Shown here in pieces: positions 1-8,394 of a stretch of DNA of 25,747 nt. How positions within the stretch are numbered: the first letter of the stretch is position 1; every line of letters begins with the position of its first letter. Under the pieces are notes generated by a model. The model did no database searches, had not been told where the DNA came from, and was given only the letters and a program-made list of their open reading frames with translations. Source of the stretch: a virus; the IMG/VR virus record IMGVR_UViG_3300025117_000214, positions 1-25,747 of that record. The stretch is one strand, 5' to 3'. The translations under genes were made by a program, and so were the position numbers.

Positions 1-980
1 CAAATTTTATCGTGTTTGATCAGTTCATAAATATGTATAAGATTTATTTCTGTAATTTTTTTATTAAATAGTTCAGTAATCTTTAATACGGAAGACTTAG
101 GAATATTGTCATTAGAAAGCTTCATAAGCTTATAATTCAAAATATATTGGTTTATATTGTCTGATAGTAATCTGAATGCTCTGGCGTCATCTGTGTGATC
201 GTGGGAGTAATCTAGAACGTTATCTACGGTGTATTGTTTGTCTTCATTTAAGAAACTAAAATGCTTGTTTATATTCTTAATTCCTAATCCCTTTATTCCC
301 GGTACATTATCACTTTTGTCACCAACCATAGATTTATATAAGGCAAAGTTATTTGGACTAACGTTAAATCTTGTTAATACATTTTCTTTTGTGACAACTT
401 CTTTTTTAATAGGATTCCAAACTTTTACTCTATCATCAATTAGCTGATAAAAATCTTTATCTGAAGAGATGATAAATAATTCCTGTAGTTCTTTTTTATT
501 TTTACATATATCTATTAAACAGCTTATTGAATCATCAGCTTCAATGCTATCTATACATATAAAAGTTATAGGAAGATTTTTTAAATATTGAACAATACGC
601 AATAATTGATATTGCATTTGTTTTCTTTCTTCTTCTTCATTTTCCCACTTATAAGCTCTGTTTAATCTTGTACCAGATCCACGGTTTTCTTTATAATCAG
701 GAAATATTTTTTTTCTTCTTTTAGAAGAGTCTTTACCATCTAAAACAATAAAAATACGAGTGGGTCGTAATGCTCTAATAGAAACCCCCAAAGTATGAAG
801 AAAACCGACTATTCCACCAACATGGCGTCCATCTTCATTTGTTGTAGGCATTACAACCCAAATTCGTATGAAATTATTTAAACAGTCAACAATTAAAATT
901 CTAGAATTTAAAGTTAAATCTTTTTCTTCTTTATGTTCTTTTTCTATTATTTTAAGAAGTTCTTCAAATTTTTCATTCAT
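1..980 (-). CDS. rnh: 5'-3' exonuclease / flap endonuclease, T4 RNase H-like (3' end cut by window edge)
   Basis: I translated this frame by hand: it is open for 326 codons from ATG at 980 to the window edge, so the C-terminus is missing. The family removes RNA primers and 5' flaps on the lagging strand using two metal ions. Seen: the first metal Asp in ILIVDCLNNF (D32), IVLDGKD (D81), an acidic cluster SIEADD (E148-D150), ISSDKD (D174, D176), and the helix-3-turn-helix stretch MVGDKSDNVPGIKGLG (about 218-233) with D221 and D224. These match the PIN/FEN fold of T4 RNase H (about 305 residues), so little is missing. The start overlaps the uvsX stop as TGATG, implying translational coupling. 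It is the last gene of a gp32-uvsX-nuclease operon, consistent with a shared role in replication and recombination. Family call is firm; the symbol is by analogy to T4. Confidence 0.9.
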   Translation of the reverse strand, partial: MNEKFEELLKIIEKEHKEEKDLTLNSRILIVDCLNNFIRIWVVMPTTNEDGRHVGGIVGFLHTLGVSIRALRPTRIFIVLDGKDSSKRRKKIFPDYKENRGSGTRLNRAYKWENEEEERKQMQYQLLRIVQYLKNLPITFICIDSIEADDSISCLIDICKNKKELQELFIISSDKDFYQLIDDRVKVWNPIKKEVVTKENVLTRFNVSPNNFALYKSMVGDKSDNVPGIKGLGIKNINKHFSFLNEDKQYTVDNVLDYSHDHTDDARAFRLLSDNINQYILNYKLMKLSNDNIPKSSVLKITELFNKKITEINLIHIYELIKHDKI

Positions 981-2287
981 CAATCTTCTACTGTTTCGTC
1001 AATTTCTATTTTAGATTTATCTATATTTTCAGAATTTCTGTCTACGTATTTCATAATGATTTTATCTGCAAGATTATCATACAACAGCTGTTTCTTTTGT
1101 GGATTATTAATTATTAATTCTTCGAAATTTGGGTTTTGAAATCTTGTCATTTCTAAATCGTTTTCTATCATATACCACCCTTTTACTTCTTTAAATTTAT
1201 TATCTTTATTTTCTGACTTAGTTTCATCTTCTAATTTTTTGGCTTTAATAATAGAACCATATTTTTTTCCTGTTTCAAACCAAGTTGTAGAATTATCTAA
1301 CCCTCTATCAAAATAAACATCATAATCACAAGATCTAAAAGATGGACCTAATTTACTTTTTATAACTTTACAGTTACCTCTAATACCAATTATATCAGTG
1401 CCACTTTTTAGTTTGCTTATATTTTTTAATCTCAATCTTAATGATGCATGAAATTGTATTGCCTTTCCGCCTGATGTTGTATACGGATCTCCAAATGTTA
1501 CTCCAATATTTGATCTTAATTGATTTGTAAAAATTAAAGCTATTTTATGATTAGCTATTACTTTACCAATTTTCCTCATAGCTTGTGATAATATTGTTGC
1601 CTTTTGAGTAGCAAACCCTTGTTTATCATATGTTCCCTCATCTTCAACTTTATTTGTTGCACCCATAATAGAGTCAAGAGCAATGGTAACTAATCTATCA
1701 CTGTTTGCTTTTCTAACACTCTCAATAATGTTTTCTATAGTCTGGAATGCGTCTTCTATAACTGGTATTGGAGCATAAATCATTTTACCTAAATCTAATC
1801 CTATTGCTTTCATAAATTCTCTATCAGCAGAATGTTCAGTATCTATTAATACAGGAACTCCATTCTTTTTTTGAGTTTCTAATAATATATGATGAACTAA
1901 TAAAGACTTGGCTGTGTTATGATTCAACATTCCATTTCCAAAATAACATTGATCATCATAATTTTTTTCATCTATTACTATATCTACAATTTTATATTTT
2001 CCAATATAATTTACTGCTTTTACTAAATGATAATTATCGTCATCACATAATATTTTAGTTTCATTTGGTATCAATTCGAGTGTTTTTACCCACCCAGAAT
2101 TAGTAAAAAATTGATGTTTTTTTGCTACATTTTGTTTATAGTTATTTTTTAATATAACTTGCCAAGTATCTAATAATCCTTTTTCAATGTATTTTTTTAT
2201 ATATACGTATTCTCCATTTTTTGATTTAACTTTTATTTTTTTATTTTCTTCAAGTAATTTTTTTATTTCTTTAATTTCTACTTGCAT
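980..2287 (-). CDS. uvsX: UvsX recombinase C-terminal part preceded by the C-terminal half of a split intein
   Basis: Residues 1-124 are an intein C-terminal fragment ending in NGMLNHN, and residues 125-435 are the UvsX C-extein beginning TAKS. The extein shows RecA-fold landmarks: the end of the Walker A loop (T125-S128), an IDTEHSA catalytic Glu region (E151), Walker B ALDS (D205), and the DNA-binding loop region with NQLRSNIGVTFGDP and SGGKAIQFH. UvsX coats ssDNA and performs strand exchange in phage recombination-dependent replication. Joined to the 77-residue N-extein upstream, it gives 388 residues, matching T4 UvsX (391). ATG at 2287 lies within the last 10 bases of the endonuclease gene (TTATGCAAGTAG), so its translation is probably coupled to that gene. 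The protein can be active only after trans-splicing, because this ORF lacks the N-terminus and half of the P-loop. The stop overlaps the nuclease start by one base. Confidence 0.93.
   Translation of the reverse strand: MQVEIKEIKKLLEENKKIKVKSKNGEYVYIKKYIEKGLLDTWQVILKNNYKQNVAKKHQFFTNSGWVKTLELIPNETKILCDDDNYHLVKAVNYIGKYKIVDIVIDEKNYDDQCYFGNGMLNHNTAKSLLVHHILLETQKKNGVPVLIDTEHSADREFMKAIGLDLGKMIYAPIPVIEDAFQTIENIIESVRKANSDRLVTIALDSIMGATNKVEDEGTYDKQGFATQKATILSQAMRKIGKVIANHKIALIFTNQLRSNIGVTFGDPYTTSGGKAIQFHASLRLRLKNISKLKSGTDIIGIRGNCKVIKSKLGPSFRSCDYDVYFDRGLDNSTTWFETGKKYGSIIKAKKLEDETKSENKDNKFKEVKGWYMIENDLEMTRFQNPNFEELIINNPQKKQLLYDNLADKIIMKYVDRNSENIDKSKIEIDETVED
1916..2287 (-). other. Split intein, C-terminal fragment (IntC, 124 aa)
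   Basis: Codons 1-124 of the downstream uvsX ORF. Seen: a block B-like segment AKKHQFFTNSGW with the conserved His (H58) but Ala (A55) where TxxH inteins usually carry Thr; a block F-like segment VDIVIDEKNYDDQCYFGNG; and block G NHN with penultimate H123 and terminal N124. The next residue is T125, a valid +1 nucleophile. There is no endonuclease domain inside. The fragment holds nearly the whole HINT fold, so the split lies close to the N-terminus, unlike the common split near the endonuclease insertion point. Confidence 0.9.
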
Positions 2288-3492
2288 AATTTTAATAATC
2301 TTTCTTTCTGTTTTGAATTTAATATAATTAAATTATTTTTTATTAAATTTAGAATTTTATTTTTATTTAAAATATTTTTTATATCATAAGTTTCTTCTGT
2401 TATATAATTACATTTTAAATTAAATTTGTTACAATATTCTTTTAATGCATAAAATTTAAGTTTATTTAAAGATAAATTGATTAATACTTTGGGTTTGATT
2501 TCATATATATTGTTTTCTATAATAATGTCTGGATTATATGTTTTTTTTGTGTTTTTATATTTAAAGCTTATTCTATGTTTAGATAATGAAAAATTTATAT
2601 TATTTTCTATTAGATAAATAAAAATTGATAATTCTAAAGAACTTCTAAATAAAATTTTTTTACCATTATTAATTAAATGACCAAATATTCCTCTACCTGA
2701 TAAATATGATGGAGATCTTCCATACATTGAAGTTCTTTTTGTTTTTCCATATAATTTTTTAAGATGTATATAGTTATGAAATTGATTTATATTTTTTAAT
2801 TTTAATTTAATGTCTTTAGCAAAATCATTATTCTTTAATCCATCTATATATATCCCTTTAGCATCATTACTTAATTCTGGTAAAGCATTTTTTCTATCTA
2901 AAGCATTTTGATGTAATCTTTGTGCATTTTTTTTAAATTGATTTTTAGCTTTTATAGCATTTAATATTTTACCATTATTTTTTGCATTTTCAAAAAAATT
3001 ATAAAATTTTAAATAATTAGTTATAGGAATTGGACCAATTTTTGTTATTTTGCATATATCAGTTATAGACTTTCCGTTTTTTATTTCTTCTCTAATCAGT
3101 TCTCCAAAATTTTTATTAATATTGTTGAATCTTTTTATTCTTTTTAATTTTTGATATTTTTTTAATTTTATAGATTTATTTCTTTTGTTTGTACCATTTA
3201 ATTTGTTCTCTAATTTAAGTTTTGTTTCATCTTTGGATATTTTAAATCTTTTTTTTAGTGTTTTTTCATATATATTATAAAAATTATATTCTTTGACTGT
3301 TTGTAAAATTATTCTTTCATTTTTTATATTAAAAATTTTTGCTATTTCAAATCTATTTTTTCCTTCTATCAGTAAGTTTTTAATTTTATTCCAATTATCA
3401 AATTTAAATTTACAAATATGATAATGCGAATTATAATTATTTTTACTAATTATTTTATTACACAATTCACATTTTATATAATTTACTATCAA
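2278..3492 (-). CDS. Free-standing homing endonuclease lying between the split intein halves
   Basis: A 404-residue protein, very rich in Lys, Asn and Ile. N-terminus: a zinc finger-like CELC with H23 and C27 (C8-x2-C11-x11-H23-x3-C27). Two helix-turn-helix-like stretches follow (about 39-71 and 131-166), both ending in a similar NYLKFYNF/EYNFYN pattern. The C-terminal domain (about 256-370) reads as a PD-(D/E)XK nuclease: E287 in RSSLELS, PD at 321-322 in YNPDIII, and E331-I-K333 in YEIKPK. It probably cleaves intein-less uvsX at the P-loop and so spreads the insertion; that is inference from position. The start is TTG at 3492, chosen because GGAG sits 7 bases upstream. The gene ends 10 bases inside the downstream uvsX ORF. 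It looks even more AT-rich than its neighbours, fitting a separate mobile origin. It could belong to the Vsr-like EDxHD endonucleases of fractured genes, but the visible motif is closer to PD-(D/E)XK. Confidence 0.82.
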   Translation of the reverse strand: MIVNYIKCELCNKIISKNNYNSHYHICKFKFDNWNKIKNLLIEGKNRFEIAKIFNIKNERIILQTVKEYNFYNIYEKTLKKRFKISKDETKLKLENKLNGTNKRNKSIKLKKYQKLKRIKRFNNINKNFGELIREEIKNGKSITDICKITKIGPIPITNYLKFYNFFENAKNNGKILNAIKAKNQFKKNAQRLHQNALDRKNALPELSNDAKGIYIDGLKNNDFAKDIKLKLKNINQFHNYIHLKKLYGKTKRTSMYGRSPSYLSGRGIFGHLINNGKKILFRSSLELSIFIYLIENNINFSLSKHRISFKYKNTKKTYNPDIIIENNIYEIKPKVLINLSLNKLKFYALKEYCNKFNLKCNYITEETYDIKNILNKNKILNLIKNNLIILNSKQKERLLKLCK

Positions 3493-3524
3493 AAAATTTC
3501 TCCATATACTTATTTTTATTATTA

Positions 3525-3532
3525 TATAAATA
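3525..3532 (-). promoter_or_regulatory. TATTTATA box before the homing endonuclease
   Basis: Sense-strand TATTTATA, 32 bases before the TTG start. The same box occurs before four other genes (20085-20092, 23022-23029, 25045-25052, 25643-25650), so it may be a promoter element giving the endonuclease its own transcript. It is the reverse complement of the T4 late box TATAAATA. Confidence 0.3.
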
Positions 3533-3548
3533 TATGGATTTTGAAATT

Positions 3549-3821
3549 TTATTCAATTATTATATCAATAATTGTATCTTCAGAAACACAACTTTCTAGT
3601 CCGTTTATTTCTGTAATTCTTCCAACAGGAATTCCACCGTTTCTTCTATTTGATATTACCATATCCATGATTGGGTCTCCAATCGAGACCCAATCTGTAA
3701 TGTCTGATGGATTCCATTCTGGATTATCAAGAAAATATGCACTAAAAGGACTTTCAGAAGAATTTATAACATTATATACTGAAGAAATTAATTCATCATG
3801 AATTTCACTTTTTTTCTTCAT
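3549..3821 (-). CDS. uvsX: UvsX N-terminal part plus 13-residue N-terminal split-intein fragment
   Basis: A 90-residue ORF. Residues 1-77 are the UvsX N-extein, ending RITEINGLES, the first half of the Walker A loop. Residues 78-90 (CVSEDTIIDIIIE) start with Cys and match intein block A (C-x4-T-x-I). A TAA stop follows directly, and the frame downstream holds more stops, so the intein piece is really only 13 residues as written. The GIPVGRITEINGLES context is typical of RecA/UvsX just before the P-loop. ATG at 3821 lies two bases after the gp32 stop, so the two genes are co-transcribed. Alone, this fragment cannot bind ATP. Splicing would join S77 to T125 of the downstream ORF, restoring GLES-TAKS. 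As in T4 UvsX (from memory, with Phe there), the usual Gly before the P-loop Lys is replaced, here by Ala. Confidence 0.92.
   Translation of the reverse strand: MKKKSEIHDELISSVYNVINSSESPFSAYFLDNPEWNPSDITDWVSIGDPIMDMVISNRRNGGIPVGRITEINGLESCVSEDTIIDIIIE
3552..3590 (-). other. Split intein, N-terminal fragment (IntN, 13 aa)
   Basis: Codons 78-90 of the upstream uvsX ORF, from TGT (Cys, the splicing nucleophile) to the Glu codon before TAA. CVSEDTIID fits intein block A. From memory, the best known short IntN pieces are AceL-TerL (25 residues) and VidaL (about 16), so this would be among the shortest natural ones. Confidence 0.85.
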
Positions 3822-3823
3822 TT

Positions 3824-4600
3824 TTATTTCTTAGGAAATAATTTATCAAAAGCTGCAGATGCTTTATCGACATCTTCATTTTTTACTTCTTCTTCATCAT
3901 TACTATTATTTGAAATTTCTTTTTCTTCCTTACTATTTTTGTTCTTTAACCAATTTTCTAGAATATCTTTCAGTTCGTCATATTCCAATTCTTTATAGAT
4001 ATCATTGATATTTTTTTGTTCATCAAGATATTTTTTAATTAATTCTTCAGAGTCTGAAAGTGGACTGGTATTTCTTTTTGTTCTAATTGAAGTTTTACCA
4101 AAATTGTTTCCTGCCTCTTCTGGAGTTTGATAAGTTATTACTAAATCAGTTCCATTATTTATATCAGAAATATCACCGTAATCTGGATCTGACATAATTT
4201 TTAGAATTTCTTCATAAGTAGTTTTACCAAATTGCCAAAATCTTATTCCCTCATCTTCCTCACTTCTTACTAAAACTGGAACAAATATTCTCATTTTGGC
4301 TCTTAATGTTCTGCTTAGTGCATAATCATTTTTATCTCCAGTTGCAGCTAGTTTATCAGCAAACTTTTCAAAGGGGTCTGGATTTCCAAAGGACTTTGGG
4401 GAAATATAATTTTTATTGTCTATACCATAGTGGAAAAATAATTCTATAAAAGGATACTCGGCGTGTTTATATGGAACTATTCTTACTGTGTGTTCTCCTG
4501 TAGGCTTCCACATCCCAGAAGTTCTCTGAGATGAATCTTGTAACCCTTTGAGTGTTTTTCGAACTTTATCTAAAAGTTCTTTGTGAGATCTTGTCTTCAT
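3824..4600 (-). CDS. gp32: gp32-like single-stranded DNA-binding protein
   Basis: A 258-residue protein that coats ssDNA during replication, recombination and repair and interacts with UvsX and polymerase. Seen: the gp32 core with FFHYGID (near residue 56), the FGNPDPFEKFADKL region, PVLVRSEEDEGIRFWQFGKTT (a highly conserved gp32 stretch, about 107-127), DYGDISDINNGTDL, and an acidic tail rich in Glu, Asp and Ser that ends in AAFDKLFPKK. The basic N-terminus (KTRSHKELLDKVRKTL) corresponds to the cooperative self-interaction region of T4 gp32. ATG at 4600 is supported by GGGAG 10 bases upstream. It is the first gene of the tightly packed gp32-uvsX-nuclease operon. Its leader carries a repeated hairpin-forming element (separate entry). 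T4 gp32 has about 300 residues; this one is slightly shorter. Confidence 0.93.
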   Translation of the reverse strand: MKTRSHKELLDKVRKTLKGLQDSSQRTSGMWKPTGEHTVRIVPYKHAEYPFIELFFHYGIDNKNYISPKSFGNPDPFEKFADKLAATGDKNDYALSRTLRAKMRIFVPVLVRSEEDEGIRFWQFGKTTYEEILKIMSDPDYGDISDINNGTDLVITYQTPEEAGNNFGKTSIRTKRNTSPLSDSEELIKKYLDEQKNINDIYKELEYDELKDILENWLKNKNSKEEKEISNNSNDEEEVKNEDVDKASAAFDKLFPKK

Positions 4601-4704: not shown

Positions 4705-5106
4705 CTACAATTCAACTATTTTAAGTAATTTAGTATTAATTTTTTTGAATTCATTGTTGTCTATAACTAATATTGAATTTGAATAATTATTCCAGTCAAC
4801 TAAAAATTTTTTATCTAATATTCCATCGTTAAGTAGAGTAATAAGATGATTCAAAGCATTTATAGTATAGAGAGTATTGGAAATCTTTTTCCTGTGAACT
4901 GAAATTGTATTTATAGGAATAGTTTCAACTTTGATTTCTTTTGAGCTGTCTATATTATAGCTACAGATTAGTTTATTATTCTCATTAACACTCTGTAAAA
5001 TAAATATTTTATCAAATAGAATTGTATAAGAACTTTTAATAGATTCAACTATTTTATCTAAATTCTTACTGTCTGTAAATGTTATTAGTAATTGAGAAGT
5101 AAACAT
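4705..5106 (-). CDS. Hypothetical protein in the replication module (133 aa)
   Basis: I do not recognise a named family. The protein has an N-terminal alternating strand/helix region (LLITFTDSKNLDKIVESIK) and a conserved-looking centre (ISVHRKKISNTLYTINALN, about residues 69-87). The end is VDWNNYSNSILVIDNNEFKKINTKLLKIVEL-like, suggesting a small compact alpha/beta protein. There is no signal peptide or membrane segment. ATG at 5106 follows the 53-aa gene's stop by 14 bases; the Shine-Dalgarno is weak. Position between the polymerase-like gene and gp32 suggests a replication or late-transcription accessory role, which is inference only. T4 RegA was considered and the sequence does not resemble it as I remember it. 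Confidence 0.6.
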   Translation of the reverse strand: MFTSQLLITFTDSKNLDKIVESIKSSYTILFDKIFILQSVNENNKLICSYNIDSSKEIKVETIPINTISVHRKKISNTLYTINALNHLITLLNDGILDKKFLVDWNNYSNSILVIDNNEFKKINTKLLKIVEL

Positions 5107-6759: not shown

Positions 6760-8394
6760 TTACTTCTTAAATTCTGTTAATTTATTTTCTAATAGTTTTT
6801 TTATTCCCATTAACTGTATTTCAGCATCATTCAATATATTTAAATTAGTATTAATAATATTATCTGTATTTCCAGTAATTTTCCATTTAATGCTTAAATT
6901 TGAGTAAAATGGATCTGATTGAAATTTGTTAAACTGAGCTGTATCTACTTCTAATATTTTAGATTTAGGATTGTTTACCTGTCTTAGAAAATATCTTGTA
7001 AAATATCCATTATTATAGTCAGCTTCTTTTGGTAAAGTCTTCTTTTCTTTAGCATAATCGTTTGCGGGAGCATTAGTCAATTTTTTATAAATTTGAATAG
7101 TTATTACATTTTCTTTGCTTAATTTATTGATTATAATTTTACTTGGTAATAATTCTATTATTCCGCTTGGCAGTGAAACGATAATTTCTTCTATAAATTC
7201 TTCTAATGTGAAGTCTGATATAAATAAAGTTTCTATACTAATGTCACTATCAATATTCACGTTTCTTATTAATCTATCAATTATATTTGTTGTAGCATTT
7301 AAATTTGCTAATATTTGTATTGAATCTGTTGTACGACATAAAACATAAGTATTTATTGAGGAACTTTCAACTAATTGAATAGTTTTTATTAATCTATCTA
7401 TTTCTAAGTTTGTATTGACATTTAAATCAGCTGATATATTTACAAAATTTCCTTTTGTAATATTACAGGTTATCAATGTTGTGCCAGTAATATCACTGTT
7501 TAAATTTGTCTCTTTTATAAGAGTGTCAATTATTTTAGTGGTTGAATTTAAACTAGCTAATAATTCTATTGAATTTAATGTTTTACACGATATATAAGTG
7601 TTTGTTAATGAACTCTCAGTTAATTGAATTGTTTTTACTAACTTATCTATTTCTAGACTTGTAGAAATATTTAAATTAGCAGATATGTCTATAGGATTTG
7701 CTGGATTTCCAGTCGTGATATTACATGTTATTAATGTAGTACCGTTAATACTACTCACTGGAAGCGAATCAACAGTTAATTCTAAATTTAATAAAGTGTT
7801 TATAGAACTTGTTTCATATGTTATTATGTTTCGTATTAATCTATTGTTTATAAGTGTGTTTATTGATGAAGTAGAAACTAAATTAATTACTGAAGATGTT
7901 TCATATACTGCATAAATAGCATTTAAAAATTGTTGATTAGTTGATGTTGAAGTGCCCCATGGATTGACTAAAGAAGTATTATTTGTTGAATTATAATGAT
8001 GTTCTTGTGTTGCATCAGCAGTAGTATCTATAGAAGATGCTGTAGTTGTATTATCAATTTGTAATGCCAGCCAATAAGTAGTTCCAGAAACTATTGCAAT
8101 ATTTAACCCAGATGCTGTTTTCCATCCAGAAATTGTTCCTTTAGCAACATCACCGCTGGAACCAAGTAAGACATCTGGCTGATCACTTCCAGAATGGCTG
8201 TAGATTCCTATCTGAAAATTTGCTGCATCACTATTGTTCGACGCCCAATATCCCATTTGTGTAACTGAGCCATTAATAGAAGAAATTACACGAAATGCTC
8301 GTGAAGTATTATCTGTTACAATACCTGCACCAGCAGGATCAGCTGTTGGTGCTACAGATACAAATCCACAATTTGTTCCTAATACTAATGCCAT
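6760..8394 (-). CDS. Repeat-containing tail adhesin with lectin-like N-terminus
   Basis: A 544-residue virion protein in three parts. Residues 1-165 look like a jelly-roll, carbohydrate-binding type domain (FQIGIYSHSG, GTTYWLALQIDNT, NPWGTST, AIYAVYE). Residues about 166-390 are repeats: GTTLITCNIT starts at 218 and again at 304, giving two copies of about 86 and 83 residues, and shorter units of the form SINTLINNRLIRNI recur before and inside them. Residues about 400-544 form a separate domain with NNGYFTRYFLRQVNNP and LSIKWKITG, a type I recall from other T4-like structural proteins and which probably anchors it to the baseplate. ATG at 8394 is three bases after the tailspike stop. The tailspike's C-terminus contains the same repeat motif, so the two proteins share modules. 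Probable role: host-surface binding. Confidence 0.65.
   Translation of the reverse strand: MALVLGTNCGFVSVAPTADPAGAGIVTDNTSRAFRVISSINGSVTQMGYWASNNSDAANFQIGIYSHSGSDQPDVLLGSSGDVAKGTISGWKTASGLNIAIVSGTTYWLALQIDNTTTASSIDTTADATQEHHYNSTNNTSLVNPWGTSTSTNQQFLNAIYAVYETSSVINLVSTSSINTLINNRLIRNIITYETSSINTLLNLELTVDSLPVSSINGTTLITCNITTGNPANPIDISANLNISTSLEIDKLVKTIQLTESSLTNTYISCKTLNSIELLASLNSTTKIIDTLIKETNLNSDITGTTLITCNITKGNFVNISADLNVNTNLEIDRLIKTIQLVESSSINTYVLCRTTDSIQILANLNATTNIIDRLIRNVNIDSDISIETLFISDFTLEEFIEEIIVSLPSGIIELLPSKIIINKLSKENVITIQIYKKLTNAPANDYAKEKKTLPKEADYNNGYFTRYFLRQVNNPKSKILEVDTAQFNKFQSDPFYSNLSIKWKITGNTDNIINTNLNILNDAEIQLMGIKKLLENKLTEFKK

What the first reader, a model, noticed from the sequence alone, without database searches (positions are those of the whole stretch)
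980..3821. Fractured uvsX: split intein in the P-loop with a homing endonuclease gene between the halves
The recombinase gene is in two pieces 1.2 kb apart. The first ends GLES-CVSEDTIID-stop; the second contains an intein C-terminus ending NHN followed by TAKS. Joining gives GLES-TAKS, a Walker A loop, and a 388-residue UvsX. Between the pieces lies an independent nuclease gene. This is the fractured-gene arrangement reported from marine metagenomes (Dassa et al. 2009, from memory, for helicase, IMPDH and ribonucleotide reductase genes). I cannot say whether uvsX has been described as a host gene. Here an essential recombinase, which itself would help repair the homing break, depends on trans-splicing.
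Basis: partly seen in the sequence, partly recalled or inferred. Interest (0 to 1): 0.95.

Follow-up and report, generated by a model that had tools for sequence, protein, structure and literature searches.

The report
Recombinase gene split by an intein
A phage DNA-repair gene (uvsX) is broken in two by a split protein-splicing element, whose first piece is only 13 amino acids, with a homing-nuclease gene between the halves; this is a real new case of a known arrangement, and its relatives show how such splits form, decay and heal.

Summary
On the minus strand, uvsX-N (77 residues) ends in a 13-residue intein start, CVSEDTIIDIIIE-stop. A 404-residue nuclease gene follows, then an ORF of 124 intein residues (ending NHN) plus 311 UvsX residues. 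Joining gives 388 residues that align without a gap at the junction with an intact phage UvsX. Two other contigs carry the region base for base, so it is not an assembly artefact.

Viral contigs hold 14 further split uvsX genes at the same P-loop position, all with 13- or 14-residue IntN and conserved splicing residues. Some have the nuclease intact, others only remnants; a few phages have the intein unsplit. Cultured Pseudomonas phages (PA5oct, Paride) carry a related fractured uvsX whose intein is close to VidaL, a split intein with measured splicing. The nuclease is a T7-endonuclease-I/TnsA-like PD-(D/E)XK enzyme.

Best reading: an S1-split class 1 intein (VidaL type) that rebuilds UvsX by trans-splicing, with a homing endonuclease between the halves. 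Splicing and cutting were not assayed. It is a new member of a known kind (fractured genes). Its IntN is shorter than the 15-residue record in the papers read, and the family documents decay and re-joining.

The parts
3591..3821 (-). uvsX N-extein, 77 codons (M1-S77), ends ...RITEINGLES: residues 1-4 of the Walker A loop
   Evidence: ORF; phrog_97 UvsX E 4.6e-8; aligns with Mel-JY01 UvsX
3549..3590 (-). IntN: CVSEDTIIDIIIE (13 aa) + TAA; block A with nucleophile Cys1 (residue 78 of the ORF)
   Evidence: sequence; 13 or 14 aa in all 15 split loci of the family
3493..3548 (-). 56-nt spacer with GGAG ribosome-binding site for the nuclease gene
   Evidence: sequence
2278..3492 (-). free-standing homing endonuclease gene, 404 aa (TTG start): N-terminal zinc-finger-like motif, HTH-like segments, C-terminal PD-(D/E)XK nuclease
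   Evidence: HTH_7 and Phage_endo_I weak Pfam hits; family: Phage_endo_I 6/8 members, TnsA_N 4/8, phrog_15427 3e-13, T7 endonuclease I structures E 0.0014
3412..3471 (-). zinc-finger-like motif C8-x2-C11-x11-H23-x3-C27 in the nuclease
   Evidence: read from the sequence; not tested by profile
2491..2646 (-). predicted nuclease core: R283-S-S-L-E287 ... P321-D322 ... E331-I-K333-P; R283, S284, L286, E287, P321, D322, E331-P334 invariant in 8 homologues
   Evidence: alignment A7
2278..2287 (-). ATGCAAGTAG: IntC start codon inside the end of the nuclease gene (10-nt overlap)
   Evidence: 4-nt overlap in 6 homologous loci, 26 nt in one
1916..2287 (-). IntC, 124 aa: block B H58, block F/G ...CYFGNGMLNHN with H123 and N124
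   Evidence: AF2 model pLDDT 76, best PDB match VidaL 6vgv; family profile against 7cfv 2e-11 and 6vgv 2.6e-7
980..1915 (-). uvsX C-extein, 311 codons + stop: T+1 AKSLL (rest of Walker A) to the end of UvsX
   Evidence: Pfam RecA 3.4e-41, phrog_97 3.8e-40
1..983 (-). neighbour: 5'-3' exonuclease gene (runs off the window)
   Evidence: complete copy L003:7305-8363, Pfam 5_3_exonuc_N 2.3e-29
3824..4600 (-). neighbour: gp32-like single-strand DNA-binding protein
   Evidence: Pfam gp32 2.3e-14, phrog_1192 2.3e-19

Best explanation
This is a fractured uvsX. The gene of the phage recombinase is cut between the 4th and 5th residue of its Walker A loop by a class 1 mini-intein (137 residues in all) that is split right after its first beta-hairpin (S1 site). 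The 13-residue IntN is the tail of the UvsX-N polypeptide; the 124-residue IntC heads the UvsX-C polypeptide. IntN docks into IntC and completes the Hint fold. Cys1 takes over the N-extein, Thr+1 accepts it, Asn124 cyclises with the help of His123, and a continuous 388-residue UvsX is released. The ORF between is a PD-(D/E)XK homing endonuclease predicted to cut uvsX alleles without the insert near the P-loop codons, so that repair copies in IntN, nuclease and IntC together. The IntC start overlaps the nuclease stop, so production of the second UvsX half is probably translationally coupled to the nuclease. Shown: gene anatomy, homology, conserved catalytic residues, selection on the protein, recurrence, and nuclease decay in relatives. 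Inferred: splicing, cleavage site, homing and coupling.
For: Gapless junction with an intact UvsX. Same region in three contigs. Fifteen split uvsX loci including this one, all split at the same P-loop position, with IntN of 13 aa (12 loci) or 14 aa (3 loci), Cys1, block B His, His-Asn end and Ser/Thr+1 throughout. 75 of 75 other UvsX loci checked have an uninterrupted GLExSGKSLL, the empty site. IntC model matches inteins, best VidaL; profile E 2.6e-7 to VidaL and 2e-11 to a DnaX mini-intein. Contiguous versions of the same intein in uvsX (L112, L115, L123, L142). dN/dS 0.03-0.36 for IntN and IntC and 0.18-0.41 for the nuclease in compared pairs. Nuclease family present in 8 loci with E...PD...ExK invariant. 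Intein more alike than host between window and L104 (64% against 39%); UvsX tree rejects window+L104+L105 as one clade, p-AU 0.007. Cultured PA5oct/Paride have a homologous fractured uvsX, and the PA5oct C-half ORF is annotated as seen by ESI-MS/MS.
Against: No splicing or cleavage assay exists for this protein. The window's intein alone is below Pfam's cut-off; the family profile, not the single sequence, is convincing. The block B Thr/Ser position (T-x-x-H) is Ala here. Walker A has Ala for Gly, so the ATPase of this particular UvsX could be altered, though some T4-type UvsX have GDSKSFKS without that Gly (L095). The structure model leaves the last 16 residues of IntC at low confidence and contains no IntN. 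The nuclease could not be folded (pLDDT 40), so its class rests on profiles. The intein tree does not reject window+L014 as sisters (p-AU 0.098), so horizontal movement is likely rather than proven.
Confidence: 0.88

Rival explanations
1. Genes in pieces: the two UvsX parts work as a non-covalent complex and the intein sequence is a relic, as for the split NrdA of phage Aeh1.
For: Split phage enzymes that work without splicing exist (PMC2988022).
Against: The break lies inside the Walker A loop. Catalytic residues at both ends of the intein are kept in all 15 loci, and IntN and IntC are under purifying selection. Contiguous, in-frame versions exist that must splice to give a normal P-loop.
Confidence: 0.05
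2. The intein is too short at its N-end to splice and gives only cleavage products; the gene is a pseudogene in a decaying phage.
For: 13 aa is below the shortest characterised natural IntN, 15 aa (PMC10189870, PMC13014065). Block B Thr is replaced by Ala, Walker A Gly by Ala.
Against: 13-14 aa is the family norm. An 11-aa IntN works in the artificially split M86 intein (PMC13014065). Selection acts on all parts. The VidaL relative splices with a half-life of about 1 min (PMC13014065).
Confidence: 0.05
3. The nuclease is not a homing enzyme but an unrelated gene that landed in an already split uvsX.
For: Several relatives keep the split without an intact nuclease (L014, L092, L104, L106, L107, L127, L135). 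No cleavage data.
Against: One nuclease family occupies this exact spot in 8 phages, and six loci without an intact copy keep its 3' tail beside IntC (five of them at 0/200 shuffles). So the split state goes with this nuclease family.
Confidence: 0.12
4. Assembly artefact or strain mixture: a continuous uvsX exists in the same phage.
For: Contig from a metagenome.
Against: Identical in three contigs, one of 112.8 kb, where a RecA-family search finds only this copy. The same layout recurs in unrelated contigs and in sequenced isolates.
Confidence: 0.01

Closest known systems
Fractured genes (Dassa et al. 2009, NAR 37:2560; known here only by title and from citing papers)
   Same: Conserved phage enzyme gene in two ORFs, split intein halves at the break, free-standing endonuclease gene between, phage replication/repair gene as host.
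   Different: From memory, half of the known loci have Vsr-like nucleases; here it is T7-endonuclease-I/TnsA-like PD-(D/E)XK. The split is the atypical S1 type with a 13-aa IntN.
VidaL split intein (PDB 6vgv, 6vgw)
   Same: S1 split just after the first beta-hairpin, Cys1 type, ultra-short IntN, best structural match of IntC, profile E 2.6e-7.
   Different: IntN 16 aa against 13 aa. About 21% identity to the window; it is much closer to the fractured uvsX intein of phage Paride (E 3.5e-39), so VidaL is probably itself a uvsX intein. Host gene not confirmed in papers available here.
PolB16 OarG split intein (PMC10189870)
   Same: S1-type split, very short IntN (15 aa), DNA-replication host gene.
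   Different: Ser1/Ser+1, cysteine-independent chemistry, PolB host, IntC 168 aa.
Fractured uvsX of Pseudomonas phages PA5oct, Paride, MIJ3 (Wroclawvirus)
   Same: Split intein at the same P-loop position (GESG|SGKS), nuclease gene between, cultured phages.
   Different: IntN 17 aa, Vsr-like nuclease of 477 aa. The MIJ3 paper reports only the PolB split intein (PMC6892783).
Contiguous intein in RecA/UvsX of T5-like phage Cyrano
   Same: Intein in the UvsX P-loop.
   Different: Contiguous, roughly 470 aa, inserted after GPPSAGK, three residues further downstream.
gp41-1/gp41-8 and NrdJ-1 split inteins
   Same: Phage split inteins from fractured genes.
   Different: Canonical late split: long IntN, short IntC.

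Membership tests
Fractured gene with split intein | conserved enzyme gene broken into two ORFs at one point, parts add up to the full protein | tested here: met
   388 aa joined, gapless at the junction against Mel-JY01 UvsX
Fractured gene with split intein | intein halves with splicing residues at the break | tested here: met
   Cys1, block B His, His-Asn, Thr+1; fold and profile matches
Fractured gene with split intein | free-standing endonuclease gene between the halves | tested here: met
   404-aa ORF with PD-(D/E)XK motif and endonuclease profile hits
Fractured gene with split intein | nuclease of the Vsr-like (EDxHD) family (half of the known loci, from memory; not a required feature) | tested here: not met
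   profiles hit T7 endonuclease I and TnsA, not Vsr
Fractured gene with split intein | trans-splicing yields active enzyme | not testable with these tools
   needs expression
Class 1 intein | Cys/Ser1, block B T-x-x-H, block F, block G His-Asn, nucleophile at +1 | tested here: met
   all but the block B Thr, which is Ala here and Ser in most relatives
S1-split (VidaL-type) intein | split directly after the first beta-hairpin, IntN about 15-17 aa | tested here: met
   IntN 13 aa, slightly shorter than the known range; contiguous relatives run on at the same point, e.g. L112 CVTEDTEIDVIID-NPTKIKIKEV; IntC best matches VidaL
PD-(D/E)XK homing endonuclease | E ... PD ... (D/E)xK active site with DNA-binding modules | tested here: met
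   E287, D322, E331-x-K333 invariant in 8 homologues; HTH_7 E 9e-5
PD-(D/E)XK homing endonuclease | site-specific cut of the empty allele and biased inheritance | not testable with these tools
   needs cleavage and mixed-infection assays
UvsX/RecA recombinase | RecA-type ATPase core with Walker A GxxxxGK[ST] | tested here: met
   RecA 3.4e-41; Walker A is GLESTAKS, Ala for Gly

The most novel reading that the evidence does not exclude
The uvsX P-loop intein family preserves a whole cycle of gene breaking in present-day phages. A contiguous mini-intein (L115, L142) was broken by a nuclease gene at the first loop, leaving a 13-residue IntN. The nuclease gene then decayed while the split remained (L014, L104, L106, L127, L135). 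In some phages the halves fused again: L123 reads CVTEDTIIDVIIE directly into the old IntC start Met. Translational coupling of IntC to the nuclease stop would make the host gene depend on the parasite while it is present.
Probability: 0.5. Interest if true: 0.72.

Novelty: new member of a known kind. Interest (0 to 1): 0.58.

Why it matters
If the native pair splices, CVSEDTIIDIIIE is shorter than the 15-residue record in the papers read, which is useful for attaching synthetic peptides. The host protein is the recombinase that homing itself needs, so the element relies on a gene it has cut. The family offers matched intact, decayed, nuclease-less and re-joined alleles at one site, including a 99.3% identical pair that differs by a nuclease deletion (L127/L128), so how split inteins arise and disappear can be tested directly. 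Cultured Pseudomonas phages with a homologous fractured uvsX make protein-level tests possible now.

Tried and rejected
Group I/II intron instead of intein: no Rfam match at gathering thresholds in the window. Assembly artefact: three contigs agree. Vsr-like nuclease: not supported by profiles. tblastn of the nuclease against isolated phages: no match. Intein family in bacterial/archaeal genomes: none confirmed. The apparent match of Mel-JY01 to part of IntC was alignment overrun; its uvsX is intein-free. The intein tree alone does not resolve the order of split and contiguous states. Papers linking uvsX to split inteins: none among open-access texts; Dassa 2009 not held; the VidaL paper was not among the papers found, so its host gene is inferred from sequence only.

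Full report
OBSERVATION. The window is a 25.7-kb IMG/VR virus record. On its minus strand lie, in order, a gp32-like ssDNA-binding gene (4600-3824), uvsX-N (3821-3549), a nuclease ORF (3492-2278), IntC+UvsX-C (2287-980) and a 5'-3' exonuclease (983 off the end). uvsX-N has 77 UvsX residues ending GLES, then CVSEDTIIDIIIE and a TAA stop. The downstream ORF has 124 intein residues ending LNHN, then TAKSLL. Joining GLES to TAKS gives 388 residues, 40% identical to the intact UvsX of Microcystis phage Mel-JY01 with no gap at the junction. Window 901-4000 is present base for base in contigs 3300025015_000154 and 3300025030_000051. The 112.8-kb contig has a single RecA-family match, so no second uvsX was seen there. 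No Rfam intron was found.

WHAT THE INTERRUPTION IS. Single-sequence intein hits are weak (Pfam Intein_splicing E 1e-4 for the ORF and 0.015 for the joined intein, below cut-off). With relatives added the case is strong. Thirteen of 14 members hit Intein_splicing, best 8e-10. The profile hits solved inteins: DnaX mini-intein 2e-11, gp41-1 1e-8, VidaL 3e-7. An AlphaFold model of IntC from four sequences (pLDDT 76) has inteins as its top 34 PDB matches, VidaL first. The split falls directly after the first hairpin (S1).

RELATIVES. Scans of viral contigs gave 15 non-redundant split uvsX loci including the window, all split between P-loop residues 4 and 5. IntN is 13 aa in 12 of them and 14 aa in 3, always closed by a stop codon. 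Eight have a full nuclease of one family (window, L105, L108, L109, L110, L111, L114, L141). L014 keeps only the catalytic half, and L104 a 5' piece and the tail. L092, L106, L107, L127 and L135 have no nuclease ORF, but the spacer still translates into the nuclease C-terminus; with L104, five of the six tested reach 0/200 shuffles and L107 2/200. L127 and L128 are 99.3% identical over 4.5 kb; L127 carries a nuclease remnant where L128, at its contig end, still has the nuclease ORF. L112, L115/L116, L123 and L142 have the intein contiguous, and L123 reads straight from IntN into the former IntC start Met. All 75 other UvsX loci checked are uninterrupted.

NUCLEASE. The family shows R-S-x-L-E ... 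PD-I ... E-I-K-P, invariant in eight members. Profiles point to T7 endonuclease I (E 0.0014), Phage_endo_I and TnsA and phrog_15427 endonuclease (3e-13). The window's copy also has a zinc-finger-like motif and HTH-like segments. It is therefore a modular PD-(D/E)XK nuclease, not Vsr-like. The IntC start codon overlaps the nuclease stop by 4 nt in six loci, 10 nt in the window and 26 nt in L105, which suggests translational coupling.

SELECTION AND MOVEMENT. dN/dS is 0.03-0.36 for IntN and IntC and 0.18-0.41 for the nuclease in the pairs compared; synonymous changes are near saturation in several pairs, so these are rough. The window's intein is 64% identical to that of L104 although their UvsX are only 39% identical; its UvsX sister is L014 (59%). 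The UvsX tree rejects window+L104+L105 as a clade (p-AU 0.007). The reverse test on the short intein is not significant (0.098). Horizontal movement is likely, not proven.

CULTURED COUSINS. Pseudomonas phages Paride, PA5oct and MIJ3 have the same layout; read in Paride: uvsX-N ...FAGESG|CLPETAKVKIRLSKKQS-stop, a 477-aa Vsr-like nuclease, IntC ...SSHN|SGKSYIV. The PA5oct C-half is annotated 'ESI-MS/MS'. Salicola phage SCTP-2 carries a related contiguous intein at the same site. The Paride intein matches VidaL at E 3.5e-39. VidaL splices with a half-life near 1 min and has a 16-aa IntN; the shortest characterised natural IntN is 15 aa in PolB16 (PMC13014065, PMC10189870). The MIJ3 paper describes only the PolB split intein (PMC6892783).

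MECHANISM AND STATUS. Trans-splicing by an S1-split class 1 intein is the best account, and homing by the nuclease the likely reason for its presence. Anatomy, homology, selection and recurrence are shown; splicing, cutting, homing and coupling are inferred. Open points are the Ala in Walker A and the Ala at the block B Thr position, both peculiar to or uncommon in the family.

NOVELTY. It meets the definition of a fractured gene; Vsr membership of the nuclease was tested and not met, but that is not a required feature. New here, as far as the open literature searched shows: uvsX as a recurrent host with more than a dozen cases, a 13-aa IntN, a different nuclease family, and allele series showing nuclease loss and re-fusion. 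It is a new member of a known kind with above-average value for studying how split inteins arise.

Noticed in passing
L003:8856-11801 (same phage as the window, contig 3300025030_000051): The gp41-type helicase gene downstream also looks fractured at its P-loop: ...SPGMGK|CVGKNTKIDIQ...-stop, a 308-aa MTES_1575/Vsr-like nuclease, then IntC ...LSHN|SWQL + DnaB_C.
   Followed up: partly
L014:6537-9505: Second fractured gene in that phage: gp41-type helicase ...SQANR|CLFLDTN... with a long IntN, MTES_1575/DUF559-like nuclease, IntC ...VHN|SGSS.
   Followed up: partly
L107, L112, L114, L123, L135 (6.6-8.9 kb region of L107, L112 and L114): uvsX is broken a second time after GDxx: CVDPxTTKIKIRYxx (15-aa IntN in most), followed in several by a GDFWHANP (Vsr-like) nuclease and an IntC ending NHN|TxSGGKA. 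In L107, L114 and L135 UvsX would come from three polypeptides.
   Followed up: partly
L100, L118, L119 (Pseudomonas phages Paride, PA5oct, MIJ3): Fractured uvsX in cultured jumbo phages, not mentioned in the MIJ3 paper; the intein is very close to VidaL.
   Followed up: yes
L103:2737-4707 (Salicola phage SCTP-2): UvsX with two contiguous inteins, one at the P-loop site and one at ISGG|CLVADTD.
   Followed up: partly
L102:632-3904 (LR756500, huge phage): PhoH-like ATPase fractured in its P-loop: KAG|CLYPDEKIKIYKMKSKNKINSKNQQE-stop, nuclease ORF, IntC ...SSHN|TGKTLL.
   Followed up: no
L095:4472-7182: Helicase gene fractured in the P-loop with an 18-aa IntN (CVHPDTQIRVRITSPRVS) and an HNH-like nuclease gene on the opposite strand between the halves.
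   Followed up: no
window 1904-1915 / 3591-3602: The rebuilt Walker A is GLESTAKS with Ala where every relative checked has Gly.
   Followed up: partly
window 4705-5106: Small conserved gene without Pfam or PHROG match next to the gp32-like gene; similar ORFs stand at the same place in L014, L092, L107, L115 and others.
   Followed up: no
window 7277-7686 in ORF 8394-6760: Imperfect repeats of about 160 bp (76% identity) spaced about 249 bp in a large structural-looking gene.
   Followed up: no
L003:8413-8865: IS605 OrfB/TnpB N-terminal fragment between the exonuclease and helicase genes.
   Followed up: no
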